Of a stretch of 38,920 bases of DNA, positions 17,037 to 35,783 are shown piece after piece. Position 1 is the first letter of the stretch. Every line of letters starts with the position of its first letter. The notes under the pieces were generated by a model. The model was not told where the DNA came from, made no database searches, and was given only the letters and a program-made list of their open reading frames with translations. The translations under genes and the position numbers were made by a program. The stretch is taken from IMG/VR virus record IMGVR_UViG_3300044703_000143, positions 1 to 38,920 of that record; one strand, written 5' to 3'. The DNA comes from a virus.

Positions 17037-17605
17037 TGCGGCGGCCCGGAGACGGCGCCGCCGGCAGCGACGCCCGTGTGCTTGTGGCCCTTCAGGCTCT
17101 TCCCGCCGCCGACGACGTCGGTCTCGGCCGTCAATGTGCCGAAAACGCGCGCGTCGCCGTGGATCTCGACGTCGCCGTAGATCTTCACCGCTGCGCCGGT
17201 GACGTTGATCTCCACGCCGCCCGAGGCGTCGACGAGGACGGTCGCCCCGTCGGGGAGCTTCACCTCGAGCGCGTGGCCTTCGGGATCGTAGGCGAGCTCG
17301 GCGCCGTCGGCGAACTTGATCAGCTCGCGCTTGCCCTCGCCGGGCAAGGGGAAGTCGTCGCAGGCGAGGCCGCCGATGGCGAAGGCGCCCTCGATATCGC
17401 CGCCCGGGCAGATAAGAACGACTTGCTCGCCGACGCTGTGCGGGGAATAGGTGCGCGTCTCGCCGGCGCGGCGCTCGAGCCAATGGATCTTGTCGGTGCG
17501 GATCTCGCCCGTCTCGATCACGACACGGCCGCCCTCGACCTCAGCCACGCGGCCGAAGCGGACGAGCTCGCCGATCGCGGCGGTTTCTTCAGGATCCCTG
17601 GACAT
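17033..17605 (-). CDS. V: Baseplate spike protein gpV
   Basis: P2 gpV family central spike (190 residues): N-terminal OB domain (LVRFGRVAEVEGGRVVIETG, SVGEQVVLICPGGD), a beta-helical stem (DGATVLVDASGGVEINVTGA, VEIHGDARVFGTLTAET) and the C-terminal tip GHKHTGVAAGG, whose HxH motif binds iron at the tip of P2-type spikes. First gene of its late unit. ATG 17605 has no Shine-Dalgarno; a -10-like TACCAT lies six bases upstream and the late dyad 44 bases upstream, so the mRNA may begin at the ATG. Confidence 0.95.
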   Translation of the reverse strand: MSRDPEETAAIGELVRFGRVAEVEGGRVVIETGEIRTDKIHWLERRAGETRTYSPHSVGEQVVLICPGGDIEGAFAIGGLACDDFPLPGEGKRELIKFADGAELAYDPEGHALEVKLPDGATVLVDASGGVEINVTGAAVKIYGDVEIHGDARVFGTLTAETDVVGGGKSLKGHKHTGVAAGGAVSGPPQ

Positions 17606-17675
17606 CGCCCCATGGTAGGGGCAGGGGCTGCGCCAGTGCGCGCCCGCGCTGTTGTAGCGGCGCGTTCCTACAACA
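17605..17675 (-). promoter_or_regulatory. Late promoter A (before V), Ogr-type dyad
   Basis: TGTTGT at 17650-17655 and ACAACA at 17670-17675 (14-base spacing); the arms extend to a perfect 8-bp repeat TGTTGTAG/CTACAACA. On the minus strand TACCAT (17617-17612) is a -10-like hexamer six bases from ATG 17605. The dyad centre lies 57 bp from the ATG, which fits activation near -55 if transcription starts at the ATG. It begins 18 bases after the glycosyltransferase stop. Confidence 0.8.
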
Positions 17676-17692
17676 TGGCGCGCAGCCGCCGG

Positions 17693-18295
17693 CTAGAGGG
17701 CGAGGTCGATCTCCGCGACATGCCGAACTTCGGCCGACAGACCGTGGTCGACGACCGGCCGCATTCCTTCGGCCCTGAAGAGGCCGCAGATGTGGCCGTC
17801 CTCGCCGTCAGCCCCCATCCGGAACCAAGGCCTTGGAAGCTGGCGCAGATGGTGCGCCTTCATCAGGCAGACGCCGAGGCCGATCACGTCAACCTGCTCG
17901 AGGCCCTCCGGCTTCGGCTGAAGCCGCTGCACCTCTCCGTCGACCAGGTTGAACGCCGACGGAATGACCTCCTCGACTATGCGCTGGCGGTAATTGCAGC
18001 CGACGATCGGCAGGTCGTGAAGGGCGAGCCGGAAGAACGAGTCGCTCGGGAAGATCATATCGTCGTCCAGCCAAAGCAGATAATCGGCGTCGCGAGCAAT
18101 CGCTTGCTCGGCGAGCTGGTTTCGATTGTCCGCGACATAGGCGCCTTCGATCCCGCACGACCAGACCTCGGGAACCGTCGGGCGCTGGTTGTAGATGATC
18201 GGCGTCGTCAGTGTATGGATCAGCAGAGTGTCCCGGCAGATAACATGCTTCCACCTGGGGAAGCCGCGGGTCGGAGTCAGGATAGCAATCCGCAT
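17693..18295 (-). CDS. Small GT-A glycosyltransferase
   Basis: A 200-residue glycosyltransferase-like protein: N-terminal beta strand RIAILTPTRG, the NRNQLAEQAIARDADYL segment and the metal-binding DDD (residues 77-79) in LLWLDDDMIFP, then FFRLALHDLPIVGCNYR and a helical C-terminus with conserved aromatic residues. It fits the family-2-like GT-A enzymes found in phages. Last gene of the adhesin cassette and expressed late, so modification of virion proteins or of the cell surface during lysis are both possible; the acceptor is unknown. ATG 18295. No membrane segment. By eye its codon bias is slightly less GC-extreme than the structural genes. Confidence 0.8.
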   Translation of the reverse strand: MRIAILTPTRGFPRWKHVICRDTLLIHTLTTPIIYNQRPTVPEVWSCGIEGAYVADNRNQLAEQAIARDADYLLWLDDDMIFPSDSFFRLALHDLPIVGCNYRQRIVEEVIPSAFNLVDGEVQRLQPKPEGLEQVDVIGLGVCLMKAHHLRQLPRPWFRMGADGEDGHICGLFRAEGMRPVVDHGLSAEVRHVAEIDLAL

Positions 18296-18315
18296 GGCCG
18301 CCCTTACTCCGCCAA

Positions 18316-19551
18316 TTACTCCGGAGGATAGATCGTAAATGGCAGGATGTATGGGAACGGCGAGTTCTCGGCGCTGTCGTTCGTCTCCGTGACCTCGACC
18401 TGGTATTGCGTATAAAGCGCATCGGTGATCTCGCGCGTCGTTTCGAGGCTTAGGCCATTAAGCGTGAACAGGCCCGCCGCGTCCTGGGTTAGGGTGAGCG
18501 TCGAGCCCGGAAAGACGTTCGTGATAGTGCCGACGACATAACCCGCGGGCGCGCCGAAGGGGATGTTGTAGTTGTTCGGCTCCAAGCCCTTGCCGCTCAG
18601 GTTGGGGGCGTTGCCGAGCTGAACGAAGATCTGCGTCTGCCGAGGCGAGCCGTAGGTGCCCGGCGCGCGTTCCCGCAGCGAGATCGCGTGTTGCTGCATA
18701 TTCTCGAAGTCGAGCAGCCACGGCGTAGCGACCACGATGTTGTCGTCGAGCAAAGCGAACCGGCCTTCAGCATTTTCAATCAGCTCGACCGTAGAGCCCG
18801 GGATGCTGCGGACTACGCTCCCGACGACCGTTCCAACGGGAGAGTTTTCCGTGACCAAGTAGCCGGTGAGTGTGAGATCGCCGATCTTGCGGAACAAGCT
18901 CACCTTGCCGATCGAGAGCGTCCGGTTTGGCGACATGGGATAAAAGCGGAGGCGGAGGAGCGGCGCGCCGTGGCCTGCCACCAGCTCGACGGTCTGCTGC
19001 CCGGAGGATCCGGAGCCGATAACCGACGAGCCGCTGGCGAACGACCAGACAGGCCGACAGAAGCCCGTCTGATCACCTGCCTCGTATACGACCAGGAGCT
19101 TGTCGCCCGCGACGATGCTATCGGACGCCCAAGACGCGAAGATGTCCTCTTCGTCGTAGTTGGTGCCGCCGATCATCCGGAGCTTGTGTGTGGCCTGGTC
19201 GAGAAACATCGTCGCCGTGCCAGCATCCGGGCTAACATAGATCAGGGGGGGCGGCCCGGCGTCTTCAAGATCGCCGTTCTCGATCAGGCTCAGCGGCGCT
19301 TCGATTGCTACGGAATTGATCTGGAGATAGGTGCTGCCGGTGAGGGCCGTGAAGAGCGCCTGCTGGTCGGTGATCAGATAGGTCTTGCCCGGCTCGAGCC
19401 CATCCTTTGCGGCCGCGAAGTCGAAGTCGGCCCGCGTCAGGGTGACGGGGCCGCCGCCGCCGCCGACGGCGTCGGCGAGCTCGGCGCGCAGCGCCCTGAA
19501 CTCTTGGGAGACGCGGGCGACGAAGGCGGCGAGGCGGGCGGCGAGCGTCAT
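18316..19551 (-). CDS. Tail-associated adhesin with cadherin-like repeats
   Basis: A 411-residue protein. The N-terminal helix (MTLAARLAAFVARVSQEFRA) resembles that of the next gene upstream, suggesting a common anchor. A Gly linker leads into a module with LTRADFDFAAAKDGLEPGKT then YLITDQQALFTALTG, and the C-terminal half has two cadherin-like repeats (LTGYLVTENSPVGTVVGSVV, and NNYNIPFGAPAGYVVGTITN). Such repeats bind ligands or calcium in surface adhesins. Likely a receptor-binding or accessory virion protein. It ends 20 bases before the glycosyltransferase start. Confidence 0.65.
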   Translation of the reverse strand: MTLAARLAAFVARVSQEFRALRAELADAVGGGGGPVTLTRADFDFAAAKDGLEPGKTYLITDQQALFTALTGSTYLQINSVAIEAPLSLIENGDLEDAGPPPLIYVSPDAGTATMFLDQATHKLRMIGGTNYDEEDIFASWASDSIVAGDKLLVVYEAGDQTGFCRPVWSFASGSSVIGSGSSGQQTVELVAGHGAPLLRLRFYPMSPNRTLSIGKVSLFRKIGDLTLTGYLVTENSPVGTVVGSVVRSIPGSTVELIENAEGRFALLDDNIVVATPWLLDFENMQQHAISLRERAPGTYGSPRQTQIFVQLGNAPNLSGKGLEPNNYNIPFGAPAGYVVGTITNVFPGSTLTLTQDAAGLFTLNGLSLETTREITDALYTQYQVEVTETNDSAENSPFPYILPFTIYPPE

Positions 19552-19554
19552 CGG

Positions 19555-20097
19555 TTAGGCGAGGCCCGCCTCGAAGACCGCGACCAGGTCTTGGTCGGGA
19601 TCGCCGATATCCCCGGTGCCGACGGCGCCGATATTCGTCCGCGCCTGCGCCTTCTGGTCGGTCGTGAGGGCCTGGGCCGCGTCGAAGCGGACGCGGTTCC
19701 CGATCGCGGTCGCGAGGCCGGCGAGCTCGGCCGCGTCGCCCTCGAGGAGCGCCTGAAGCTCGGTGAGGGTGTCGAAGGCGGCGCCGGCGCCGCCCAGGAT
19801 CTGGTCGCGGACCGCGGCGGCCGTCGTCTCGAGCTCGGCGATGATCTTGTTGATGGACCAGGTTTCCGCGCTCGAGGCGGAGGCGTTGTCGTCGATCGTC
19901 GCCGCGGCCTGGGCGGCGGCGTGGGCCGCGACCGCCGCGGCGCGGACCTCGTTGATCGCCTCGACCAGGTTGGACTTGGTGACGGTGGCGAGAGAGGTGA
20001 GATCGCCGACCTTCGCCTGCAGGGCGAGCCGGATCGACTTGCACTCGGTGGCGACGCGGGTCGCGAGGCTTTGGAGGCGCGTGGCGAGGAGGCCCAT
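19555..20097 (-). CDS. Helical tail-fibre-like protein, 180 aa
   Basis: Starts with an amphipathic helix (LATRLQSLATRVATECKSIR) shared with the 411-residue adhesin gene. Then TKSNLVEAINEVRAAA, a motif common in phage tail-fibre connector repeats, and an extended coiled coil (SASSAETWSINKIIAELETT). The C-terminal part ARTNIGAVGTGDIGDPD is also fibre-like. It probably forms a trimeric stalk of the baseplate appendage. No enzyme motif. Confidence 0.6.
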   Translation of the reverse strand: MGLLATRLQSLATRVATECKSIRLALQAKVGDLTSLATVTKSNLVEAINEVRAAAVAAHAAAQAAATIDDNASASSAETWSINKIIAELETTAAAVRDQILGGAGAAFDTLTELQALLEGDAAELAGLATAIGNRVRFDAAQALTTDQKAQARTNIGAVGTGDIGDPDQDLVAVFEAGLA

Positions 20098-20107
20098 GGT
20101 TGTTCCT

Positions 20108-20635
20108 TCAGAAGAGGAGTTGGTTGTCGAAGATCAGGGCGAGATCGCCTGGATCCTCGTTGGTGGCGGCTTCCCCCTGCGGCCCTTGCGGGCCGACGCC
20201 TCCGGTGAAGCCGCGGATCCCGAGGCGGGCGAAGCGGATCGAGAGACGTCGGCCGCCGTCGACGCGGCCGGCGATCGGCGCTGAGTTTGCGCGGAACGGC
20301 TCGCCCTCGAGGGGGCGAATCGGCGCCCCCTCGGGAGCGCGCGGGACCATCAGGGGAACGTCGTCGAGGACGATGATCTCGGGCCCGGGCAGCTCGAGGC
20401 GCAGGCGGACCTTGTAGCGGCGCTGGCGCTGGACGGTGCTCGTCTGCGCCCGCGTCATGGTGAGGGCGGCCACGCCGCCGGCGCGGTCGCTCCAGCTGAT
20501 CGTCGGGGTGAAAGGGAGGTCGGTCGCCTCGACGACGAGGACCGCGCCGGCGCAGTCGAGCGGCCGCTGCTCGGCGGCGTCCTCGAAAAGGCAGATCTGC
20601 CAGCTGGGCGTCTCCCCAGGGCGGAAGTCGAGCAT
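20108..20635 (-). CDS. Baseplate/appendage base protein (BppU-like), 175 aa
   Basis: First gene of the adhesin cassette. The beta-rich N-terminal 110 residues (MLDFRPGETPSWQICLFEDA, AGAVLVVEATDLPFTPTISW, RRYKVRLRLELP) look like BppU-type upper-baseplate domains that hold receptor-binding proteins; this is a pattern match only. A short collagen-like stretch GVGPQGPQGEAAT follows at about 149-160, with an acidic end. ATG 20635 has GAGG seven bases upstream, unlike the leaderless V, J and P starts. Confidence 0.55.
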   Translation of the reverse strand: MLDFRPGETPSWQICLFEDAAEQRPLDCAGAVLVVEATDLPFTPTISWSDRAGGVAALTMTRAQTSTVQRQRRYKVRLRLELPGPEIIVLDDVPLMVPRAPEGAPIRPLEGEPFRANSAPIAGRVDGGRRLSIRFARLGIRGFTGGVGPQGPQGEAATNEDPGDLALIFDNQLLF

Positions 20636-20665
20636 CGGTTTTCCTCACGCCGGCGCAGCGGCCGA

Positions 20666-20734
20666 GAAGGCACCTTGGCGGAGGGTGAGGGGGAGGGCGC
20701 GGCCGCGCTGTTGTCGCGGCCCGATCCTACAACA
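20666..20734 (-). promoter_or_regulatory. Late promoter B (before adhesin cassette)
   Basis: TGTTGT 20709-20714 and ACAACA 20729-20734, again 14 bases apart; the right arm extends to CTACAACA, the left reads TGTTGTCG. A start near 20666 would place the dyad centre at -55 and leave a leader of about 30 bases with a Shine-Dalgarno. No good -10 hexamer seen (CAAGGT near 20677-20672 is weak). Confidence 0.65.
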
Positions 20735-20756
20735 TCGGGAGCCCGAAACGGAAAGA

Positions 20757-20786
20757 CCCGGCGAGCGGAACAATTCCGCCGCCGGG
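20757..20786 (-). terminator. Probable terminator after dam
   Basis: Downstream of dam the minus strand forms CCCGGCG-G-CGGAA, loop TTG, TTCCG-CT-CGCCGGG. A U-containing stretch (TCTTTCCGTTTC) follows, which makes an imperfect but plausible intrinsic terminator. It separates com-dam from late promoter B. Confidence 0.55.
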
Positions 20787-20849
20787 CCCCGGGGGACCGC
20801 CTTAATAGCTAATCCCAAGCCTGTAGGAAATAAGCATTATTTGCGTCGT

Positions 20850-21677
20850 CTAGAAGTCGTTCGCTGCTTCGCGACCTGCGGCGAGGGCCTCGGGCCGGTT
20901 GCTGATGATCAGTTCCTTCCCGGTGCCGTGAGAGACGGTATAGCGAAACTCGACCGGCTCGATCGCGAACTCGCCGAAGAACTCGCGGACCGCGGGCTTG
21001 TCGTTGATGGTGAGGATGAAGCTCCCCTTCATCGTGCGGAGACACTCGCGCAGCTCGGTATAGTCTTCGCGGGTGAAGAGCTCCTTCCCATAAAGCCCCT
21101 CGATCCCCCAGTAGGGCGGATCGATGAAGAACAGCTGCTTTTCGCGATCGTAGCGGCGGATGAAGGCGCCGAAGGGCAGTCGCTCGATCACGACGCCGGC
21201 GAGCCGCTCGTGCAGATCCTCGAGGACGGGCTGCAGCCTCGTCACGTCGAAGCGACCGGGCCGCAGGGGGCGCGCGGCGAAATTGATCCCCTCGCGGCGC
21301 GCGCCGTAGGCGGTGCATTGCAGGTAGAGGAAGCGCGCCGACCGCTCGAGATCGGTGAGAGTTTCTGGATCCGTCGCCTTCAGGCGATCGAACTCCGCGC
21401 GCGTCGTGATCTGGAACCGAAGCATGTCCATGAAGGCGACGTAGTGGCGCTGCAGGATCCGGAAGAACGTCGAGACGTCGCCGGAGAGATCGTTGATCAC
21501 TTCCTGCCGCGGTTTCGTCTCGCGACGAAGGAATACGCCGCCCATGCCGACGAACGGCTCGCAATAGCCCTGATGAGGGATGGCGTTGATGATTGCCGCG
21601 AGGCGACCGGCTAGCCGGCTCTTGCCGCCGATGTAGGGCGCGGGCGGCATGGTCGGCTGAATTGCAATCATGGTCAC
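20850..21677 (-). CDS. dam: Dam-type DNA adenine N6-methyltransferase
   Basis: D12-class methyltransferase of 275 residues. The SAM-binding motif is PFVGMGGVF (41-49), the catalytic motif is DPPY at 186-189, and the N-terminal YIGGKSRLAGRL and central YLQCTAYGARREGINFAARP segments fit phage Dam enzymes; GATC is the likely target but is not provable here. The start is GTG 21677, seven bases after AAAGGA and overlapping the com stop (GTGA); Met3 is a secondary candidate. It lies in an Ogr-type late unit just after com, like Mu com-mom. Methylating late progeny DNA would protect it from restriction in the next host (inference). A stem around the start may block translation without Com. Confidence 0.88.
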   Translation of the reverse strand: MTMIAIQPTMPPAPYIGGKSRLAGRLAAIINAIPHQGYCEPFVGMGGVFLRRETKPRQEVINDLSGDVSTFFRILQRHYVAFMDMLRFQITTRAEFDRLKATDPETLTDLERSARFLYLQCTAYGARREGINFAARPLRPGRFDVTRLQPVLEDLHERLAGVVIERLPFGAFIRRYDREKQLFFIDPPYWGIEGLYGKELFTREDYTELRECLRTMKGSFILTINDKPAVREFFGEFAIEPVEFRYTVSHGTGKELIISNRPEALAAGREAANDF

Positions 21678-21847
21678 TTTGAGTTCCTTTCGGCCGTTCC
21701 TTGGGCGGTCGGGCAAGGGCTCAAAGGCCTCAGATTGTTGAACGCGCCGCACCTGCGGCACTTGATCTCGATCAAACCGGAGATCGCGGCTTTTGCGGCT
21801 TTGAAGAGGAGCGCCCCGCAACCGGCGCAGCGATGAGATTCCTTCAC
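21674..21847 (-). CDS. com: Com-like zinc-finger translational regulator, 57 aa
   Basis: A short gene easily missed: GTG at 21847, stop TGA at 21676-21674. The product reads KESHRCAGCGALLFKA, then GLIEIKCRRCGAFNNLRPLS. Cys7-X2-Cys10 and Cys30-X2-Cys33 form a zinc finger, and the LLFKA, IEIKC and RCG.FN.LRP segments match the Com family of phage Mu. Mu Com binds mom mRNA and opens a structure that hides the mom start. Here com overlaps a dam-type gene by four bases (GTGA), so dam is the presumed target. No strong Shine-Dalgarno is seen; an inverted repeat ends eight bases before its start. Confidence 0.85.
   Translation of the reverse strand: MKESHRCAGCGALLFKAAKAAISGLIEIKCRRCGAFNNLRPLSPCPTAQGTAERNSK
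21677..21726 (-). promoter_or_regulatory. Predicted stem around the dam start codon
   Basis: On the mRNA, CTTTGAG (21726-21720) pairs with CTCAAAG (21683-21677), whose last G is the first base of the GTG start. An inner hairpin CCTTG/CAAGG (21718-21714 with 21703-21699) lies inside, and the AAAGGA Shine-Dalgarno (21690-21685) is enclosed. The layout resembles the Mu mom leader that Com opens. Confidence 0.5.
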
Positions 21848-21855
21848 TGGAAAGT

Positions 21856-21917
21856 ACCCGTATCTTGTCCCGCGCGAGGCGGCGACGAGCTCGGCCGAGG
21901 CCGGGCAGGATACGGGT
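21856..21917 (-). promoter_or_regulatory. Inverted repeat in the com leader
   Basis: ACCCGTATC (21856-21864 on plus) and GATACGGGT (21909-21917) form a perfect 9-bp stem. After an A-C mismatch in the mRNA it extends by two pairs and, past another mismatch, by four more. The loop contains a smaller CTCGGCCGAG palindrome. The 3' arm ends eight bases before the com GTG, so it could hide the com ribosome-binding region or be a Com-binding element. Confidence 0.5.
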
Positions 21918-21978
21918 GGCAGCCCGTCGAACTGGCGAGCGCTGGCGACGCTCGATCGGCGACCGCGAGGCCGTCGAC

Positions 21979-22048
21979 GTCCCGAATCCTATTTGGGCGT
22001 CAGATCCGCGACGAGCCGTCCCTGTTGTAAGAACGGCTCGCGACAACA
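21979..22048 (-). promoter_or_regulatory. Late promoter C (before com-dam)
   Basis: TGTTGT 22023-22028 and ACAACA 22043-22048 with 14 bases between. On the minus strand TAGGAT (21991-21986) is a fair -10; a start near 21979 puts the dyad centre at about -56 and leaves a leader of about 130 bases. The asymmetric inner bases point opposite to the other copies. Together with 22049-22228 and the com leader this explains the 380-base stretch without a gene. Confidence 0.7.
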
Positions 22049-22228
22049 GCGGCTGCGGAACTTTCTCCATTCTGGCGAAAGCGCTGGACTCGGTTTGTAG
22101 AATTAGCGAGGGCGACGCGCCGGTGTGCCCGGTGGGGAGACTGAGCGCGGCCCGGGCCGCGGGAGGTGCGGCTGGCAGGTCGCGGTCGGCGGTTGGCGCC
22201 GTCGGCCCTCCCCTCTCTTCTCCTCGAG
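22049..22228. other. Intergenic region between fibre unit and promoter C
   Basis: I see no gene here. It holds a 16-bp perfect palindrome of C and G (22146-22161), which may act in termination of the fibre unit. At 22094-22104 the 11-mer TTTGTAGAATT is identical to the left half and centre of the repressor operator at 9818-9828. No U-tract terminator is visible. Confidence 0.4.
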
Positions 22229-22486
22229 CTACGCGAGTTCGTAGCTATGGGCGATCGCCTCGAGCACGGTGAAGCCGATGATCGTCCCCGCCTCGTCGAC
22301 CGGCAGATCGAACCGCATGGCCCGGAAAGGTCCGTCGATCTTCTCGACGAGCTCGCCCGTGAAATTGTGCGATCGCCACGCCTTGTAGGGGACGCCCTCG
22401 GTGTTCGCCGAGGGCGGCGGCTTGCCGTTGGAGACGGCGACCTGGTCGCCGATCGAGAGGGTTTCCCAGGCTTGCGCGAAGTCCAT
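22229..22486 (-). CDS. Hypothetical 85-aa protein after the collagen-like fibre
   Basis: No family recognised. ATG 22486 starts one base after the fibre stop. It is a compact, mixed protein with no repeats (FAQAWETLSIGDQVAVSNGK, then FTGELVEKIDGPFRAMRFDL, VDEAGTIIGFTVLEAIAHSY) that looks folded. Last gene of the J-to-fibre unit; a fibre chaperone or small virion protein is possible from position. Confidence 0.65.
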   Translation of the reverse strand: MDFAQAWETLSIGDQVAVSNGKPPPSANTEGVPYKAWRSHNFTGELVEKIDGPFRAMRFDLPVDEAGTIIGFTVLEAIAHSYELA

Positions 22487-22487
22487 A

Positions 22488-25698
<3,211 letters not shown>

Positions 25699-25709
<11 letters not shown>

Positions 25710-26190: not shown

Positions 26191-26192
26191 GG

Positions 26193-27680: not shown

Positions 27681-27681
27681 G

Positions 27682-28308
27682 TCACCTCTCCAAAAGATCG
27701 CCGTTTTCGGCCTGGAGGGGCTCGCCCTCCTCGGTGCTGAGGAAGGCCGTCTGCTCGGCGCGCATGTCGGCCGTCGCGACGATCCGGACGAAGCCGGCGA
27801 CGCGCGCTGCGCCGACGATGTTGAGGCCGGCGCCCGCCTTCAGGCTTTGGATGAACTGCAGGTGCGAGCGCAGCGGCTTCACTCGCGCGATCTCGCGGAC
27901 GATCTTCTCGGCGAAGGCCGCGGTCGACCGCTCGCCGCCGCCAAGGCCCAGATCGAGCCGGACCTGGAAAACGTGCGGATCGAGGCGCGGCTGCGCCTCA
28001 AACCATTCCACGAGCTCGAGCAGCTCGTCGAAGCCGGCGAGGACCGCCTCGACGGCCGCGCGCGTTCCCTTGCGGCGCTGCAGGTCGATCGCCCGCGCGA
28101 CCTCGAGCCGCTTCCGCTGCTCGGACCAGGCCGATTCCCAAGCATCGATGCTGAGGCCCCAGGCAAGCCAGGGGAGGAGCTCGACGGGGCAGGTCCAAGG
28201 ATCCCAGATCGAGGGCAGGGGAATCGGGACAGCCGAAACCCGCGTGACCGTCGTCGCGATCGCGCGCTCGAGCGGCTTCGCGTTCGGGGGCAGGAGGGCG
28301 GCCGTCAT
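27682..28308 (-). CDS. I: Baseplate protein gpI
   Basis: P2 gpI family (208 residues): LLPPNAKPLERAIATTVTRV, PLPSIWDPWTCPVELLPWLA and WESAWSEQRKRLEVARAIDL are the conserved landmarks, including the PW.LAW core. It builds the baseplate wedge with J. ATG 28308 overlaps the J stop (ATGA); the longer frame to 28347 is not needed. Followed by H. Confidence 0.93.
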   Translation of the reverse strand: MTAALLPPNAKPLERAIATTVTRVSAVPIPLPSIWDPWTCPVELLPWLAWGLSIDAWESAWSEQRKRLEVARAIDLQRRKGTRAAVEAVLAGFDELLELVEWFEAQPRLDPHVFQVRLDLGLGGGERSTAAFAEKIVREIARVKPLRSHLQFIQSLKAGAGLNIVGAARVAGFVRIVATADMRAEQTAFLSTEEGEPLQAENGDLLER

Positions 28309-29201
28309 TCGCCGACGACCGCGAAGCTGAGGTTGACGCTCGTGCACCAGGGCGCCTGCGTCGCGCCGAGGACCAGGTTCCCCGGCGAGGTGAGGTCGAC
28401 GCGCTGGACGCCGTCGACGTGAAGGGCCGCGTAGAGGGCCGAGATCGTCACGTCGCGGCCGAGGCGGCGCGCGGCCGCGAGATAGGCCTGCAGGCTCGCC
28501 TCGGCCGCCGCCATGACGATCGTCGGATCCGGCCCCTGGTAGACGTAGAGCTTGGCGAGGATCGCGAACTCGACGACGTCGGCCGACTGGACGGTGACGA
28601 GGTCGGTGAGGGGGCGGACCTCGCGGCCGTTGACGATCGCTTCGACCTTGGCGAGCAGCTCGGCCGAGGCCTCGCCGTTTCCAAGTCTCGAGAGGACGGT
28701 GACGACGACGGATCCCGGCGACGGGCTGGTCGCGCTCGCGTCGAGGACGTCGGCGTCGGCCGAGCGCGCGTGGAAGACGTAGGCGAGCTCGGGCCCGGCG
28801 ACGCTGAAGCTCTCGGGCGCGAGGATGACGCGCTGGCGCAGCGCGTCGTCGTCCTCGAGAACGGCCGCGGTGCCGGCGACGGGATCCGCCGGCGTGAGCT
28901 CGAGGCGGGCCACGCCGACCAGGGCGGCGACGTGATCGAGGTCCGCGCCGGCCGCGAAGGCGACCATGACGCTGCGCGCCCGATCGTTGAACTCCTGCCG
29001 GATCAGGAGCTCGCGGTAGGCGAAGACCTGCAGGAGCTTGACGACCGGCTCCGATTCGACGGTCGCGTCGAATCCGGGCATGGCGATCTGCATCGATGCC
29101 ACCAGTGCGTCGAAGATCTGCTCGAAGCTGAGCTGCTCCACCACGTCGGGGGGAGGCAGGCGCGAGAGATCCACTGCGGTCGAGTTTGAGCTGCCGGACA
29201 T
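28305..29201 (-). CDS. J: Baseplate wedge protein gpJ
   Basis: P2 gpJ/Mu gp47 family (298 residues): DLSRLPPPDVVEQLSFEQIF, the ESEPVVKLLQVFAYRELLIR motif and AAGADLDHVAALVGVARLEL are diagnostic. First gene of its late unit. I choose ATG 29201 over ATG 29210: there is no Shine-Dalgarno before either, and 29201 sits at the same distance from the late dyad as the V and P starts (44-45 bases from the arm). This suggests a leaderless mRNA. Confidence 0.93.
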   Translation of the reverse strand: MSGSSNSTAVDLSRLPPPDVVEQLSFEQIFDALVASMQIAMPGFDATVESEPVVKLLQVFAYRELLIRQEFNDRARSVMVAFAAGADLDHVAALVGVARLELTPADPVAGTAAVLEDDDALRQRVILAPESFSVAGPELAYVFHARSADADVLDASATSPSPGSVVVTVLSRLGNGEASAELLAKVEAIVNGREVRPLTDLVTVQSADVVEFAILAKLYVYQGPDPTIVMAAAEASLQAYLAAARRLGRDVTISALYAALHVDGVQRVDLTSPGNLVLGATQAPWCTSVNLSFAVVGE

Positions 29202-29271
29202 TGCGGCCATGTCGGGCCGCGCGCGGGATGGCCGCTAGGCGCGCCTGTTGTAGCGGCGCCTTCCTACAACA
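29202..29271 (-). promoter_or_regulatory. Late promoter D (before J)
   Basis: TGTTGT 29246-29251 and ACAACA 29266-29271, with arms extending to TGTTGTAG/CTACAACA. The dyad differs from the one before V at a single base. CGACAT (29214-29209) sits where the -10 should be, seven bases before ATG 29201; it is a weak match. Confidence 0.78.
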
Positions 29272-29303
29272 TCGGCCCCATGCCCGCGGCCGAGCGCGCC
29301 CCT

Positions 29304-29378
29304 AGCTTAGGGATCTCCCGGGCCTGGTGCCCGGCTTTCGCGAAGGGAGGTCCTGATGCGCTGAATCGCCCCTAAGCT
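29304..29378 (-). terminator. Nested stem-loop after S
   Basis: AGCTTAGGG (29304-29312) and CCCTAAGCT (29370-29378) form a perfect 9-bp outer stem around an inner hairpin CCGGGC/GCCCGG. It lies between the S stop and promoter D. There is no clear U-tract, so termination is plausible but not certain. Between it and S lies a run of 13 C (29401-29413). Confidence 0.4.
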
Positions 29379-29425
29379 CAGGCCTCTGCCGGGGCGCGGG
29401 CCCCCCCCCCCCCGCCCCCCTTCTC

Positions 29426-29923
29426 TTATGCCTGGGCGAGCTGCTCGAGCACGATATCCATGATCGCCTCGTTGTCGGCCTCGCTGATGCCGAGGACGCG
29501 CCGCATGGCGTATTTGGCGACGGGCGAGCTCGGGTCGCGCGTGACCGTGTCCTCGAGGCCTTCCTGGTGAACCGTCATGATCCGCGCCATGGCGCCGACA
29601 TAGCCGACGCGGGCCTCGCCCGTCGTCGCTTCCTTCCGAAGATATTGAGTGTTCCGCGCCCTGAGGAACATCTTCCGCTGTTTGATGCTCCGCTTCAGCT
29701 GCGTCACCTTGTCCCGCTTGCGCCGGGCCCGGGGCTTTTTCCGCGGCTCGAAGGCGCGGCCCTCGGCGTCGACGTTGGCGCCGATGGTCTTCTGGCGCGC
29801 CTTTTGGAGGTGGGCCGCGATCTTCAGGCCCATCTTCTTCCGCTCGGCCGGCTCGATGCTCGAGGCGAAGTCCGCGAGGAAGGTTTCGAGCTGCTCGATT
29901 CCGGCGCCGACGATCTCGGCCAT
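29426..29923 (-). CDS. S: Tail completion protein gpS
   Basis: Phage virion morphogenesis family, P2 gpS (165 residues): the basic stretch FEPRKKPRARRKRDKVTQLK and AMARIMTVHQEGLEDTVTRD are typical. It acts at tail completion or head-tail joining. ATG 29923 shares one base with the R stop (TAATG). Last gene of the O-to-S unit. Confidence 0.9.
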   Translation of the reverse strand: MAEIVGAGIEQLETFLADFASSIEPAERKKMGLKIAAHLQKARQKTIGANVDAEGRAFEPRKKPRARRKRDKVTQLKRSIKQRKMFLRARNTQYLRKEATTGEARVGYVGAMARIMTVHQEGLEDTVTRDPSSPVAKYAMRRVLGISEADNEAIMDIVLEQLAQA

Positions 29924-30426
29924 TATCCGAGCTCGGGGCCGGCCTCGCCGTGGCGGCAGACGAGCTCGCCGTTCGCCCAGATCTCGCCGGCTAGGGCGCC
30001 GAGGGGAACGTCCTCGAAAGTCGCGTCGATCGGCGGCTCGGGGCGATAGACGAGCTCGAAGCCGCCTTCGCGCGGCTCGACGTCGACCGCCTCGGTAAGA
30101 TCGAGGCGCACCTCGAGGTCGATCAGCTTCTCGCCCAGGACGACGACCTCGTAAGTAAAGGCCTGGTCGCCGTCGGTGTGGTTGAGGAGGAGCTCGCGCT
30201 GGTTGTCGCGTAGCCAGAGGAGAACCGGGAAGAGGATCTGATTCCCGTCGCCGGCGAAATTGGTGACAATGATGATGCAGCGGTACCGGTACTCGAAGCT
30301 GAGCCCGGCGCCATACCGCGCCGCCAGCTTGCCCTTGTCGATGAAGACGGCGAGCTGGTCGGGATCCGTCTCGAGGGACGAATTGGCCGCGACGATCGCG
30401 GCGCGGAGGCTATCGGGCTTCTTCAC
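29923..30426 (-). CDS. R: Tail completion protein gpR
   Basis: P2 gpR family (167 residues) with the signature start MKKPDSLRAAIVAANSSLET, then DKGKLAARYGAGLSFEYRYR and LLWLRDNQRELLLN. In P2 it is needed for tail completion with gpS. ATG 30426; it follows a 136-residue gene after three bases. Confidence 0.92.
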   Translation of the reverse strand: MKKPDSLRAAIVAANSSLETDPDQLAVFIDKGKLAARYGAGLSFEYRYRCIIIVTNFAGDGNQILFPVLLWLRDNQRELLLNHTDGDQAFTYEVVVLGEKLIDLEVRLDLTEAVDVEPREGGFELVYRPEPPIDATFEDVPLGALAGEIWANGELVCRHGEAGPELG

Positions 30427-30429
30427 CGA

Positions 30430-30840
30430 TCAGCGTTTGCGGCTCCGGCTTCGCCGGAAGCTGAAGGTGCCGTCCGGGACCAGCGCCGGGATCGCGGAGA
30501 GGCCGAGCGAGGCGAGGCCGATCGTGTGCGACCCGCCCCCGCTGATGATCATCGCGTAATTGGCGAGGCCTCCGGAGATCGCCGCGCCGGACGAAACCTC
30601 CGACAGGCGGGCGAGCAGAAGGCGGAACAGGGCGAGGAACGGCGAGGCCGCCTTGTCACCGAGCTGCTGCAGGAGGGTACGCTCCACCGCCCGGGCCGCT
30701 TTCGCGGCAACCTTCGGCGCAGCCTTCCGAACGGCGGCCTGGGCAGCGGCGGCCGCCTTGGGGGCGCCCTTCCGGATCGCGGCGCGGGCAGCGCTCTTGC
30801 CGCCCCTTACGATCGCGCGCTTTACGTCGCGGCCGCTCAC
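30430..30840 (-). CDS. Basic Ala/Lys-rich protein in lysis-gene position, 136 aa
   Basis: GTG 30840 overlaps the endolysin stop (GTGA). The N-terminal 70 residues are Ala/Lys/Arg-rich helix (KSAARAAIRKGAPKAAAAAQ), then RTLLQQLGDKAASPFLALFR and a more hydrophobic, Gly-rich half, ending in a basic RRSRSRKR tail. No family recognised. P2 has lysA/B/C at this place, but no spanin features (signal peptide, lipobox, Pro-rich Rz1) are visible. A virion, DNA-binding or lysis role are all open. The in-frame extension to 30993 overlaps the endolysin and is rejected. Confidence 0.6.
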   Translation of the reverse strand: MSGRDVKRAIVRGGKSAARAAIRKGAPKAAAAAQAAVRKAAPKVAAKAARAVERTLLQQLGDKAASPFLALFRLLLARLSEVSSGAAISGGLANYAMIISGGGSHTIGLASLGLSAIPALVPDGTFSFRRSRSRKR

Positions 30841-31487
30841 GAGAAGCGCCTCGTGCAGACCGCGAGCTCGCGCCGGCGGCGTTGATCGAGGCCGCGGACG
30901 ACGCGCCCGCCGGCCTTGTTCCACATCAGCAGCGCCGAGCAGCCCTGAGGGTAGAGGCCGGCGTTGAACCGGCGCGCGACGGTCGAACCGCAATAGCCGC
31001 GGCCGCGGATCCTCTTGGCGGGGATGGCGCGCCGGCCTACGCCGACGTTATAGGCGAGGGAGGTGGCGGCGAACCGTGGGCCGACGCGGCGCAGCTCGGT
31101 CGCCCGATCGGGCGACAGCGCCAAGCCCGGCGTGCAACGCATGACGCCCTCGGCGTGCTTCACCAGCTCTTCCTCGAGCATTTCGGTGCACTGAGCCTCG
31201 GTGAAGGTCTCGCCCTTGCGGATCTTCCGGCCCTGATAGGTCGTGATCCCGTCGCAGGCGGTGGCGACGCCGACAATGTCGAGATAGGCGCGCAGATACT
31301 GGCGGCCGCGGACGTGCTGGATCGTCGCGCTGCCATCGGCCGCGATCGACGCCTTGACGACGCGGCCGCTTTCCTCGGCGGGGATGCCGACCAGGAGAAG
31401 CCCGGCGCAGGCGGCGCCGACGACGGAGGCCAGGGTCTTCCGGCCGGGCCGGACGCCCGGGCGAGGGGCGGGTGCAGTTCGAGTCAT
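30837..31487 (-). CDS. K: Endolysin (R21-like lysozyme, GH24) with signal-arrest segment
   Basis: A 216-residue lysozyme-like protein. A weakly hydrophobic N-terminal segment (TLASVVGAACAGLLLVGIPA) looks like a SAR domain. The catalytic region aligns with phage 21 endolysin: AYLDIVGVATACDG supplies the Asp and Thr of the E-D-T triad, followed by FTEAQCTEMLEEEL and SLAYNVG. The Glu expected nine residues before the Asp is absent (Gly, with Arg beside it), so either the family uses another acid or activity is altered. ATG 31487 overlaps the holin stop. Confidence 0.82.
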   Translation of the reverse strand: MTRTAPAPRPGVRPGRKTLASVVGAACAGLLLVGIPAEESGRVVKASIAADGSATIQHVRGRQYLRAYLDIVGVATACDGITTYQGRKIRKGETFTEAQCTEMLEEELVKHAEGVMRCTPGLALSPDRATELRRVGPRFAATSLAYNVGVGRRAIPAKRIRGRGYCGSTVARRFNAGLYPQGCSALLMWNKAGGRVVRGLDQRRRRELAVCTRRFS

Positions 31488-31924
31488 GATTCCTCCGCGT
31501 GAGAAGTCGGTTCAGGAGCGTTGTCGTTCGCGTGGGCGCGCGGCGGCGTCCGGCGATGCCACGGCGGGGGAGGGACGGTCGGCTCGGCCTCGCCGAGGTA
31601 GCGGCTGCGAAGAACCGCCGGGAGCGAGCCGACCGTCTCGGCCGCGTTCTGGATGAACCGCGGCGTCGCCTCGTAGGCGATCATCCCGACGGCGAAGCTG
31701 ATGGCCTGGGCGACGAAGCCCTGGGCGCCGAAGATCGCAACGATCGCGCCGGCCGCGAAGTAGGAGACGACGATGCCGACGAGGATCTGAGCGAGGCGCT
31801 CCCCATAGGTAAGGCCGCGCTTGAACGCCTGGGAGACGGCGGCGCCGATCGCCGCGGGCGCCAGAGCGGAGCCGGCGGCCTGCGCCGTCTCGACGATCGA
31901 GGGCGGAAGGTGGAAGTCGGACAT
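31484..31924 (-). CDS. Putative holin
   Basis: A 146-residue protein between X and the endolysin, the place of P2 gpY. Two membrane segments, about LAQILVGIVVSYFAAGAIVA and VAQAISFAVGMIAYEA, and a long charged and Pro-rich cytoplasmic tail fit a phage holin, although it is longer than gpY (93). ATG 31924 is two bases after the X stop; an upstream TTG at 31936 is possible. The endolysin follows with ATGA overlap. Confidence 0.7.
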   Translation of the reverse strand: MSDFHLPPSIVETAQAAGSALAPAAIGAAVSQAFKRGLTYGERLAQILVGIVVSYFAAGAIVAIFGAQGFVAQAISFAVGMIAYEATPRFIQNAAETVGSLPAVLRSRYLGEAEPTVPPPPWHRRTPPRAHANDNAPEPTSHAEES

Positions 31925-31926
31925 GG

Positions 31927-32139
31927 TCAATCCCAAAGCTGGGGGATAGGAGGGGCCGCCGGCATGGCGGCCGCGGCGGGCAGGGTGATGGCGAGGCCTT
32001 CGGGCAGCGTCGGACCTCGAGCGGCGAGGCCCGGGTTCGCCTCGAGCACGGGCTCGACGGCCGACGTCCCGAGGACGCGCCAGACGACGGCGTCGACCGT
32101 CTCGCCGGCGCGCGCGGTGGCGGGGATCCCGACGCTCAT
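31927..32139 (-). CDS. X: Tail protein gpX
   Basis: P2 gpX family, a small LysM-like tail protein (70 residues): ARAGETVDAVVWRVLGTS, VLEANPGLAARGPTLPEGL, PPIPQLWD. The last motif matches the P..I.LW end of the family. ATG 32139 shares its A with the L stop (TGATG). Confidence 0.88.
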   Translation of the reverse strand: MSVGIPATARAGETVDAVVWRVLGTSAVEPVLEANPGLAARGPTLPEGLAITLPAAAAMPAAPPIPQLWD

Positions 32140-32624
32140 CAGATCAGCTCGACGTCCGTCGGATCCACGCCGAGGAGGTCGCGGATCGCGTGAGTCGCGT
32201 TGCGGCGATAGTCGGCCGCGCTGAGCGCCTTTTGCTCGGCCCGCTCGGCGCCGTCCTTCGTCGCCGTGACGTCGCGATAGGTTTCGACCAGGTCGGCCAT
32301 GGCGAGGTTGAAGACCGCGCGCCGGTAGCGCCGCACGAGCGCGGGCTCGAAGTCGATCTGGATCTCGGGCTCGACCGCGGCGAGCGACGCCGCGCCGGCG
32401 CGCTCCTGCGCGAAGCGCCACGTTCGGAGCTCGCGGCCGACATAGTCCTGGGCGCCGTAGATCGCCTCGAGGAGGCGCGCCTCGGTGACGGCCTCGGTGA
32501 CCCGCATTGCCTCGCGCAGCTGCGCGGGATCCGTCGCCGGGTACCAGCCATCATGCTCGACGACGGCCCTCGGGGAGGCTGGCGACGGCGCGGGCGTTGA
32601 GGTAGGGACGGCGACGAACGTCAT
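32139..32624 (-). CDS. L: Head completion protein gpL
   Basis: P2 gpL family (161 residues), a head completion/stabilisation protein: DGWYPATDPAQLREAMRVTE, LLEAIYGAQDYVGRELRTWR, YRRAVFNLAMADLVETYRDV. ATG 32624. It is separated from M by 167 bases that contain a stem-loop. Confidence 0.9.
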   Translation of the reverse strand: MTFVAVPTSTPAPSPASPRAVVEHDGWYPATDPAQLREAMRVTEAVTEARLLEAIYGAQDYVGRELRTWRFAQERAGAASLAAVEPEIQIDFEPALVRRYRRAVFNLAMADLVETYRDVTATKDGAERAEQKALSAADYRRNATHAIRDLLGVDPTDVELI

Positions 32625-32791
32625 GATTGCGGCCCGCGGGCTCCCGGGGGTTGGTTCGCCCCGCGGCTAGCGGGGGGTGGGGAGAGTCGATCTGGGGTAA
32701 CGGCCAAGGGGAGCCGCCTTCGATCGCTTCTCCGCCCCCCGAGCGCCGCGGGGCGAGCTGGTGAGCCGGGCGAGGAATTCGCCCGACGAAA
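32625..32791 (-). other. M-L intercistronic region with stem-loop
   Basis: Noncoding. Six bases after the M stop is a 7-bp perfect stem CGGGCGA/TCGCCCG with loop GGAAT (32767-32785 on plus). Further GC-rich repeats follow. No U-tract; probably an RNA stability or attenuation element rather than a terminator, since L-to-S have no other dyad promoter. Confidence 0.5.
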
Positions 32792-33529
32792 CTATTCCGC
32801 CGGCGCCGCGAGGGCCTTCGCCTCGCGCTCCAGTTTCTCGATCTCTTTCTTCACGCCCGCTTTCGGGTTGAGTTCGAGCGCGCGACGCAGGAAGCGGAGC
32901 GCTCCCTCGACCGCGGCGCGCTTGCCGCCCGCGGGCCCGTCGGCGCCGGGCTCGGCCGCGGCGGCCGCGCGGACCAGCTGCAGGCCCATGGCCTTCTGCA
33001 GCTTCGCGCGGACCTGGTCGGGCATGTCCTGCTCGGCGGTGAGCCGGTCGACCTCCTGCAGCAGCCCGAAGTCGAAATCCTCGCCCTGCCCGAGGCGCTT
33101 GATAGCTGCCTCGGCGATCTCCTCTGCGATCATGGTTGCGGCCGTGCGCTCGAAACGCTCGGGCAGGGCGAGGCCGTGGCGGAGGACGTAGGCGATCTGA
33201 GGGAGCGCGCCCTCAAAATCGCCGACGTCGATCCGCCAGACCATGACCTGGGAGAAGACGTCGTCCTGGAATCCGCCCTTGCCGGCGGCCTCCGCGTCGA
33301 GGACGCCCGAAACCCAGGGAAGATAGGCCGGGAGCAGCTGCCGCTTCAGCTCGATCTTCGCCTCGATCGACTGAAGCTCTTTCAGCCGGCGAAGATCGAC
33401 GCCGAGGCGGGCGCGCTGAAGCTCGTATTCCGTCGCCTCCGGGCCCGAGGGCGGACGCACGGCCGCGACTGCGGCGGCGGTGGCGATCCGCGCGAGGACT
33501 CGGGCCTGGTGGCGACGGGCGAGGCTCAT
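32792..33529 (-). CDS. M: Small terminase subunit gpM (endonuclease)
   Basis: P2 gpM family (245 residues), the terminase endonuclease subunit. Landmarks: SLARRHQARVLARIATAA, LKRQLLPAYLPWVSGVLDAE, the FSQVMVWRIDVGDFEGALPQ motif, LPERFERTAATMIAEEIA. The C-terminus is a charged helix (LNPKAGVKKEIEKLEREAK). It works with gpP on cos ends. ATG 33529. Confidence 0.93.
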   Translation of the reverse strand: MSLARRHQARVLARIATAAAVAAVRPPSGPEATEYELQRARLGVDLRRLKELQSIEAKIELKRQLLPAYLPWVSGVLDAEAAGKGGFQDDVFSQVMVWRIDVGDFEGALPQIAYVLRHGLALPERFERTAATMIAEEIAEAAIKRLGQGEDFDFGLLQEVDRLTAEQDMPDQVRAKLQKAMGLQLVRAAAAAEPGADGPAGGKRAAVEGALRFLRRALELNPKAGVKKEIEKLEREAKALAAPAE

Positions 33530-33547
33530 TGGCTCAGTTCCTGAGGC

Positions 33548-33563
33548 GGGGGCTTACGCCCCC
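33548..33563 (-). terminator. Stem-loop at the capsid gene stop
   Basis: GGGGGC/GCCCCC with a four-base loop that contains the N stop codon (TAA 33556-33554). No U-tract. It may stabilise the abundant capsid message or reduce read-through into M. Confidence 0.5.
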
Positions 33564-34696
33564 TCCTCCGGTGCGGCCGCCGGCTTCGGCGCCGTGACGA
33601 TGTTCTCGACGAAGGAAACGAGGCCGTATTCCTCGACGACGTAATCCTCGTTGACGCTCTCGTAGTTGGCGACGCGGTCGAACTCCGGCTCGTCCTTCAG
33701 CTGCCGGCGCCGCGTCTCTTCCTGCCAGTAGATCGACAGGTTATCGAGGCGGGTGATCAGCAGCGCGTTGGCCGGGAAGAACGGGACGCGGACCGCCGCG
33801 AGGCCGCCGATCTGCTTGGCCGAGGCGAGGATGCGATCGCGGGCCTCGATCTCGGTCGCGGTGTTGGCGGCCTGGTTGATGATCGGGAAATACTTGTCGT
33901 CGACCAGGTCGCGGCCGACGATCACGACCAGCGACGTGTCGTCGCGGTGCCACTCGTCGATCAGACGAACGGCGTCCTTCACCAGGGCGTCGAGGTTGAC
34001 GTAGTCGGCGCGCGCCGTGTCGGCGTTGCCGGCGCCGTTATTCGCGGCCTCGTTGAAGAGCTCGACGTTGTCGGCGACGTAGATCGCCTTGTTCGTGTCC
34101 TTCCCGTCGACCATGACCGGGGCGGTCAGCTCGCCGTCGTCGAGGACGCGCGCCGGGGTATTGGTGCGGATCTTGTGGAGCCAGCCCTCGTTGAGATCCT
34201 GCAGGAGCGGGAACGCGACCTTGTCGGTCTGAAGGGCGGCGTGGGTGCCGTTGAAGCCGACCATGATCCGGTCGCGGGCCTGCTGGCGCAGGATGACGTC
34301 GCGGATGATCGTCTGGAACTCGGGCTTGTGGCGCCAGGCGTCGAGCTTCGAATAGCGGATGCTGTGATCGAAGTTGGTCTGCCGGCAGTGATACCGGCCG
34401 AGAACGCCGAGGTCGGTCGGATCGCCGGGGTTGCGCCGGTTGCCGGCGGCGGTGTTGGTCCGGCTCGCGATCGGGCCGCTGACGTCGATCCCGACCTTCT
34501 CGCCTTCCTGCTGGATGACGGGAACGATATTGATCTTCTGCAGGAAGTCGCTCTGCTCGCGCATGCGCGCCTCGAGCTTCTGCTCGACCTGCGGATCGAC
34601 GGAGAATTTCGTCGTCGCGTCGGCCGCGTCGATCCCGTTCAGGAGCGCGATCTGCGAGACGTAGGCGTTGAAGAGGGCGCGGGTAGTCCTGTGCAT
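33554..34696 (-). CDS. N: Major capsid protein gpN
   Basis: P2 gpN family major capsid protein (380 residues): TRALFNAYVSQIALLNGIDA, SDFLQKINIVPVIQQEGEKV, RQTNFDHSIRYSKLDAWRHK, and the C-terminal LSIYWQEETRRRQLKDEPEF. Length is near P2 N (357), with a short extra Pro/Ala/Glu tail. Preceded by scaffold O, as in P2. Confidence 0.95.
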   Translation of the reverse strand: MHRTTRALFNAYVSQIALLNGIDAADATTKFSVDPQVEQKLEARMREQSDFLQKINIVPVIQQEGEKVGIDVSGPIASRTNTAAGNRRNPGDPTDLGVLGRYHCRQTNFDHSIRYSKLDAWRHKPEFQTIIRDVILRQQARDRIMVGFNGTHAALQTDKVAFPLLQDLNEGWLHKIRTNTPARVLDDGELTAPVMVDGKDTNKAIYVADNVELFNEAANNGAGNADTARADYVNLDALVKDAVRLIDEWHRDDTSLVVIVGRDLVDDKYFPIINQAANTATEIEARDRILASAKQIGGLAAVRVPFFPANALLITRLDNLSIYWQEETRRRQLKDEPEFDRVANYESVNEDYVVEEYGLVSFVENIVTAPKPAAAPEEGA

Positions 34697-34738
34697 CGTA
34701 TTCTATCCTTGTCAGCCTGGGGGCGGAGGCGGGGCGGT

Positions 34739-35596
34739 TCAGCAGTCGGTTTTGGCGAAATTGCCCTGCTCGCCGGTGCCGACGGGGCGGCGGCTCGAGC
34801 TGGCGTCGGTGGTTTCGAGCTTCCCCTTGAGCTCGGTGAGCTGGCCGGAGAGGGCCGCGATCTGGCCGTCAGCCTTCGTCGCGTAGGTGCCGATCGCCGC
34901 GGTGACGGCCTTCCCGAGCTCGGTCGCGAACGCGGCCTGGTCGAAGGGAGCGGCCGCGTTGGTCGCGGGCTCTTCCTTCTTCGGCTGCTCGGCGGGGGTG
35001 CCGGTGAACTTGGCGGCGAAGCCGTCGAGGACGCCCTTCAGCTTGGACGTCCAGTCGTCGGCGCCGCCCGGCGCCGAGGCGTCGAGCTCGAAGGAAACCT
35101 CCATCGCCTCGGAGAAGTGGTTGCCGGCGTCCGTCTTCCGGGCGGCGAGCGGGTTCACCTTCGCCTTGCCGGCGAACTCGAGCATCTCGGTTCCGAGGGA
35201 GGCGGGATTGTCGGTGATCGCGAGGCCGACCAGGCCGGCCTTGCCGGTGCCGGCGAAGTTCGGCGCGATCTCGCACGAGGTGAAGAGCTTCTGGCCCTTC
35301 TTGTTGATCGCGAGCAGCTGGTCGTTGACGTCGAACTGCGCCTCGAGCGCGCGCTTTTTGACGGTCTTCCCGTCGAGCTGCATCTCGAAGTCGGTGGCGC
35401 GGAGGGCGACGACGGAGCCGTAGGCATTGAACGGCGGCTCGGGGCTGAAGCCGGCGATATGCTCGCAGTTGATCCGGGCCGTGTAAGTGGCCGGGGAGTA
35501 GCCCGCGGCCATTTCATTGATCCAGTTCAGGTCGATCGTGCGGCCGTCGACGGTGGCGCCTTCGACGGCGATGCGGAAAAAGCGAGTGAGGGGCAT
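34739..35596 (-). CDS. O: Capsid scaffold/protease gpO
   Basis: P2 gpO family internal scaffold and maturation protease (285 residues). The N-terminal half has the serine-protease residues at P2-like positions: Asp17 (or Asp22), His46 in NCEHIAGFSP and Ser107 in KLFTSCE. The C-terminal half is a scaffolding coiled coil (ALSGQLTELKGKLETTDA). ATG 35596 has GGAG five bases upstream. First gene of the leftward head operon, divergent from P. Confidence 0.94.
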   Translation of the reverse strand: MPLTRFFRIAVEGATVDGRTIDLNWINEMAAGYSPATYTARINCEHIAGFSPEPPFNAYGSVVALRATDFEMQLDGKTVKKRALEAQFDVNDQLLAINKKGQKLFTSCEIAPNFAGTGKAGLVGLAITDNPASLGTEMLEFAGKAKVNPLAARKTDAGNHFSEAMEVSFELDASAPGGADDWTSKLKGVLDGFAAKFTGTPAEQPKKEEPATNAAAPFDQAAFATELGKAVTAAIGTYATKADGQIAALSGQLTELKGKLETTDASSSRRPVGTGEQGNFAKTDC

Positions 35597-35668
35597 GGTG
35601 GCTCCGGTCCTGAATTTCGGTGCCGACGCGCCCCGCCCGGGGGGTTGAAAAGCGGAACGCGCCGGTCG

Positions 35669-35783
35669 CGGCCAAAAGGGACCGGGAAGGGGGCGACGGT
35701 AAAGCGAGGCGTGTTGTAGGAAGCGCCCGCTACAACAGTGGCAGAGGGCGGGAGGGGCGCAGCCGCGGTTAGCGTCGCCGCCA
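35669..35783. promoter_or_regulatory. Late promoter region E (divergent P / O)
   Basis: One dyad, TGTTGT 35712-35717 and ACAACA 35732-35737 (arms TGTTGTAG/CTACAACA), lies between the divergent O and P genes. Rightward, TAGCGT (35770-35775) is a -10-like hexamer seven bases from ATG 35783. Leftward, a start near 35669 would give O a leader of about 72 bases. I found no second dyad in the 186-base gap, so one site probably serves both directions, whereas P2 has separate promoters for P and O. Confidence 0.75.

What the first reader, a model, noticed from the sequence alone, without database searches (positions are those of the whole stretch)
17605..35737. Five copies of a TGTTGT-N14-ACAACA dyad, one before every late transcription unit
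Exact hexamer arms with exactly 14 bases between them occur at 17650, 20709, 22023, 29246 and 35712, and I noticed them nowhere else. Each lies at the head of a late unit (V-D, adhesin cassette, com-dam, J-fibre, P/O). A divergent Ogr/Delta-type activator is encoded at 8426-8782. As I recall, the P2/P4 site is of the TGTTGT/ACAACA type with a spacer nearer 12, so a uniform 14 would be a shifted specificity matched to this Ogr. The full asymmetric motif (arm, GGA, CG, CCGC, arm) is conserved in the direction of transcription at V, J and P.
Basis: partly seen in the sequence, partly recalled or inferred. Interest (0 to 1): 0.7.

Follow-up and report, generated by a model that had tools for sequence, protein, structure and literature searches.

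The report
Ogr-type late promoters of P2-like phage
Five copies of a DNA switch mark where a bacterial virus turns on its late, particle-building genes; it is a known kind of switch, but its two halves sit 14 bases apart, a spacing that has changed several times in related viruses, nearly always at all of a virus's switches together.

Summary
Five exact TGTTGT-N14-ACAACA dyads (17650, 20709, 22023, 29246, 35712) lie in the window, none elsewhere even at 2 mismatches, with none expected by chance. They fit Ogr-type activator sites of a P2-like phage. The 118-aa protein at 8426-8782 passes Pfam Ogr_Delta and has the CX2CX22CX4C zinc motif. Site positions match annotated phage P2 promoters: one site shared by divergent P and O, and starts 44-46 nt beyond the proximal half-site. 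The motif class is published (N13 in Ralstonia phages; TGT-N12-ACA in P2).

New here: in relatives the spacer is only 13 or 14 and is uniform within 23 of 24 phages with two or more sites. N14 lies in about four places on the Ogr tree. The -10 stays at +33 from the proximal half-site in 17 of 19 P promoters whatever the spacer, so the distal half-site moves. V, J and P start codons fall at the predicted transcript starts, implying leaderless late mRNAs, as annotated for P2 V. Binding and transcription are untested. A new variant of a known kind.

The parts
8426..8782 (-). Ogr/Delta-type zinc-finger activator gene (118 aa), CX2CX22CX4C
   Evidence: Pfam Ogr_Delta 41.3 bits against cutoff 26.3; PHROG transcriptional regulator; 34% identity to P2 Ogr over 38 aa
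17650..17675 (-). Ogr-type dyad, N14, of the V-D tail unit
   Evidence: exact match; V spike homologue starts 45 nt beyond; conserved before V in G001
17612..17617 (-). predicted -10 of PV (TACCAT), +33 to +38 from the dyad; start codon ATG at 17605 = predicted TSS (leaderless)
   Evidence: positional conservation; P2 record puts the V TSS on the V start codon
20709..20734 (-). Ogr-type dyad, N14, of the four-gene fibre/glycosyltransferase-like cassette
   Evidence: homologous first gene has a dyad 43 nt upstream in G001 (N14) and G014 (N13)
20672..20677 (-). predicted -10 (CAAGGT) of the cassette promoter; here with a short leader to the ATG at 20635
   Evidence: sequence; position as in the other promoters; inference
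22023..22048 (-). Ogr-type dyad, N14, of the com-dam unit (core asymmetry reversed)
   Evidence: G001 com has a one-mismatch N14 dyad at nearly the same distance (173 vs 175 nt)
21986..21991 (-). predicted -10 (TAGGAT) of the com-dam promoter
   Evidence: sequence; inference
29246..29271 (-). Ogr-type dyad, N14, of the J-fibre unit
   Evidence: J homologue; conserved before J in relatives
29208..29213 (-). predicted -10 (GACATG) of PJ; ATG 29201 at +45
   Evidence: GACAT/GATAG conserved at this place before J in relatives
35712..35737 (.). single Ogr-type dyad, N14, shared by divergent PP (+) and PO (-)
   Evidence: P2 record annotates one activator site for both promoters
35770..35775 (+). 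-10 of PP (TAGCGT) at +33; P start codon ATG 35783 at +46
   Evidence: conserved at +33 in 17 of 19 phages
35676..35681 (-). weak predicted -10 of PO (TCCCTT), with CTTTAC as a -35-like element
   Evidence: conserved CGGTCCCTTTT in several relatives; inference

Best explanation
The five dyads are operators of the late regulon of a P2-like temperate phage. The phage's Ogr/Delta zinc-finger activator (8426-8782), probably as a dimer with one subunit per TGTTGT half-site, binds centred about 57-58 bp upstream of the transcription start and recruits RNA polymerase to promoters with a weak -10 and no good -35. One shared site fires P and O divergently. V, J and P transcripts start at or within 1-2 nt of their start codons, so these first genes are translated from leaderless mRNA. 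The promoter-proximal half-site is fixed relative to the -10; the distal half-site sits one base further out than in the N13 relatives. The late regulon also includes a fibre-like cassette and a com-methylase cassette. Shown: the sites, their context and conservation, and the fixed -10 distance. Inferred: Ogr binding, dimer contacts, the start sites and leaderlessness.
For: Exact sites far above chance. Ogr_Delta family hit and zinc ligands. P2-like gene content. P2 record: sites centred 55-56 bp from the PP, PO and PV TSSs, one site for PO and PP, V TSS on the V start codon; proximal half-site to PP TSS is 44 nt in P2, against 45-46 nt from dyad to start codon at V, J and P here. The nearest relative G001 keeps all five sites with N14, the com site with one mismatch. 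Spacer uniform in 23 of 24 phages; in 20000 permutations the mean was 9.7 and the maximum 18. -10 at +33 in 17 of 19 P promoters with either spacer. Start codon at +44 to +50 at most V, J and P sites. Published Ogr site TGTTGT-N13-ACAACA in Ralstonia P2-like phages.
Against: No binding or transcript data. The PO -10 is weak. The core asymmetry at 22023 is opposite to the inferred direction. L043 has N13 before J and N14 before P, so spacer tolerance may be +/-1. Some P promoters (L034/L038) have a leader or another start codon. The permutation test ignores shared ancestry among phages.
Confidence: 0.87

Rival explanations
1. The dyads are operators of another protein, a phage or host repressor, that silences late genes in the lysogen; Ogr acts elsewhere.
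For: Perfect inverted repeats are typical of many dimeric repressors; binding was not tested.
Against: The sites sit about 57 bp upstream of the predicted start and do not overlap the -10, which is activator geometry; the same kind of site is annotated as the activator binding site in P2 and reported as the Ogr motif in Ralstonia phages; no copy lies at an early or repressor region.
Confidence: 0.05
2. The dyads act as RNA hairpins (attenuators or terminators) in late transcripts.
For: Three of the five can form an 8-bp stem (-8.1 kcal/mol).
Against: Z-scores only -1.9 to 0; no T run; the 22023 site hardly folds; the dyad lies upstream of the conserved -10 and so outside the transcript; the P/O site lies between divergent genes.
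Confidence: 0.02
3. The sites are Ogr sites, but spacer 13 versus 14 is functionally neutral: Ogr tolerates both, and uniformity within a phage reflects shared descent. (This competes only with the matched-spacing part of the best explanation.)
For: L043 mixes N13 and N14; no Ogr residue marks N14 phages; close relatives inflate the count.
Against: About four changes on the Ogr tree, at least two forced by well-supported branches, with the separate V, J and P sites agreeing; bases inside the spacer are also more alike within a phage (78%) than between phages (49%).
Confidence: 0.35

Closest known systems
Phage P2 late promoters PP, PO, PV, PF with Ogr (annotated in NC_001895)
   Same: Ogr-family activator, dyad 55-58 bp upstream of the start, one site for PP/PO, V transcript starting on the V start codon
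   Different: P2 sites are imperfect, with published spacing TGT-N12-ACA, and contain no exact TGTTGT/ACAACA pair; operon heads differ (V-D and J here; V-G and F-D in P2)
Ralstonia P2-like phages phiRSY1 and phiRSA1 (PMC5694545)
   Same: exact TGTTGT...ACAACA arms before four late units, centred 50-90 nt from start codons
   Different: spacer 13 there, 14 here
Stenotrophomonas phage Smp131 (PMC3931495)
   Same: separate J and V late promoters and a P/O site read in both directions; zinc motif CX2CX22CX4C in its Ogr
   Different: TGT-N12-ACA type sites

Membership tests
Ogr/Delta activator family (PF04606) | profile match above the curated cutoff | tested here: met
   41.3 bits against 26.3
Ogr/Delta activator family (PF04606) | CX2CX22CX4C zinc ligands | tested here: met
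   CLHC-22-C-4-C in P0001, as described
Ogr/Delta activator family (PF04606) | binds late promoters and activates RNA polymerase | not testable with these tools
   needs binding and transcription assays
P2-type late promoter | TGT/ACA dyad about 55 bp upstream of the start | tested here: met
   dyad centre 57.5-58.5 bp from the V, J and P start codons, taken as predicted TSSs; the TSSs themselves are not mapped
P2-type late promoter | sites at heads of late units only | tested here: met
   five sites, none elsewhere
P2-type late promoter | one site shared by divergent P and O | tested here: met
   35712-35737 lies between O and P; P2 site 3057-3087
P2-type late promoter | half-site spacer of 12 (P2) or 13 (Ralstonia); it varies among accepted members, so it is not treated as defining | tested here: not met
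   spacer 14 at all five sites; 13 and 14 both found in relatives

The most novel reading that the evidence does not exclude
Ogr-family regulons have repeatedly switched the half-site spacing of all their late promoters together (13 to 14 or back), keeping the proximal half-site fixed to the -10 and moving the distal one, so that each phage's Ogr and its promoter set form a private pair; and the first late genes of these phages are systematically translated from leaderless mRNAs.
Probability: 0.5. Interest if true: 0.5.

Novelty: new variant of a known kind. Interest (0 to 1): 0.38.

Why it matters
The comparative set gives a natural series for working out how the small Ogr zinc finger reads DNA and how a whole regulon shifts its recognition site without losing function. 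Predicted leaderless late mRNAs in a family of Sphingomonadales-type prophages are directly testable. The late regulon also captures cassettes (fibre-like genes, com-methylase) that carry their own Ogr-type sites.

Tried and rejected
Searching relatives with the Ogr protein alone or with the Ogr alignment found nothing usable in the contig collections; terminase queries worked. Rejected: hairpin function. Rejected: a unique N14-specific Ogr residue; the ITHxIS motif shared by most N14 Ogrs also occurs in some N13 Ogrs and is absent from G429. The host genome could not be examined because the window is a virus record. phiRSA1 and phiCTX were not found in the phage collection under the accessions tried, so phiRSA1 is cited from a paper and phiCTX left out. 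Several Sphingomonadales prophages with Ogr lack TGTTGT dyads; their sites were not worked out. A first methylase query was out of frame and was repeated in frame.

Full report
Observation. The window is itself a 38.9 kb IMG/VR virus record, so no host genome could be examined.

Setting. The genome is P2-like: portal, terminase P, scaffold O, major head N, baseplate J and spike V are recognised. The protein at 8426-8782 passes Pfam Ogr_Delta and has the CX2CX22CX4C ligands described for Ogr. It shares 34% identity with P2 Ogr over 38 residues. The five sites precede V-D, a four-gene cassette, com plus a D12 methylase, J-fibre, and the divergent O and P genes.

Geometry against P2. The P2 record annotates one activator site for PO and PP, start sites 55-56 bp from the site centres at PP, PO and PV, and the V transcript start on the V start codon. 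In P2 the half-site nearest PP is 44 nt from the start. In the window the start codons of V, J and P lie 45, 45 and 46 nt beyond the proximal half-site. A -10-like hexamer sits at +33 to +38: TACCAT for V, GACATG for J, TAGCGT for P. The com-dam and cassette sites have TAGGAT and CAAGGT at +32. The V, J and P messages are therefore predicted to be leaderless, as annotated for P2 V: only about seven bases lie between the -10 and the start codon. For J an in-frame ATG at 29210 lies inside the predicted promoter, so 29201 is the better start.

Relatives. A terminase search found a family of related phages, including prophages in Sphingomonadales genomes. Most of the closest relatives carry exact dyads before P/O, J and V, always with spacer 13 or 14 although 8-24 was allowed. 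In 24 phages with two or more sites, 23 are uniform; shuffling spacers among sites gives a mean of 9.7 and a maximum of 18 in 20000 shuffles. This test does not correct for shared ancestry. N14 occurs in about four places on the Ogr tree, with at least two changes forced by well-supported branches. One relative (L043, Croceicoccus hydrothermalis) mixes N13 at J with N14 at P. Bases inside the spacer agree 78% within a phage and 49% between phages with the same spacer.

Fixed proximal half-site. In 17 of 19 P promoters the -10 (TAGCGT, TAGCTG or TAGTTG) begins at +33 from the proximal half-site whether the spacer is 13 or 14; the exceptions are +32 and +31. Spacer change therefore moves the distal half-site. 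Over 45 aligned late promoters, an A at +34 is conserved in 24 of 29 N13 and 11 of 16 N14 promoters, and a start codon falls at +44 to +50 in most.

Cassettes. The nearest relative G001 keeps all five sites; its com site has one mismatch and lies 173 nt from com, against 175 nt in the window. The first cassette gene has a dyad 43 nt upstream in G001 (N14) and in G014 (N13), where the cassette lies in a different place, before J. Each carries the spacing of its own phage. In the window this gene has instead a short leader with a GAGGAA ribosome-binding site.

What is known. TGT-N12-ACA is the published P2 consensus, and TGTTGT-N13-ACAACA is published for Ralstonia phiRSY1 and phiRSA1. An interaction of Ogr with the RNA polymerase alpha subunit is supported by suppressor mutations cited in PMC11434276. 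No paper found in the searchable library describes the N14 form, the joint spacing change, or leaderless late mRNAs as a rule; most subscription papers are not in that library, so this is weak evidence of novelty.

Verdict. The finding is real and its main reading is right, but it is a variant of a published promoter class. The interest lies in the joint change of spacing and in the predicted leaderless messages.

Noticed in passing
17693-20635: Four-gene cassette (175, 180, 411 and 200 aa) with fibre-like and cadherin-like sequence (by eye) and a sub-threshold Anp1 (glycosyltransferase) hit; conserved in G001, its first two genes also in G014 at another place.
   Followed up: partly
20850-21847: Com-like zinc finger (57 aa, GTG start) followed by a D12-class adenine methylase; in many relatives a homologous methylase lies beyond the terminase gene instead.
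   Followed up: partly
L043 2970 and 9913: Croceicoccus hydrothermalis contig with N13 before J and N14 before P, a possible intermediate.
   Followed up: no
L205 9582 and 9932: Two dyads 350 bp apart upstream of P, so P and O seem to have separate sites here.
   Followed up: no
L093-L114: Several Sphingomonadales prophages with Ogr but no exact TGTTGT/ACAACA dyads; their sites must differ.
   Followed up: no
29391-29420: Long G-rich run between the tail completion gene and J; possibly length-variable.
   Followed up: no
22488-25709: Fibre protein with collagen-like repeats and internal duplications.
   Followed up: no
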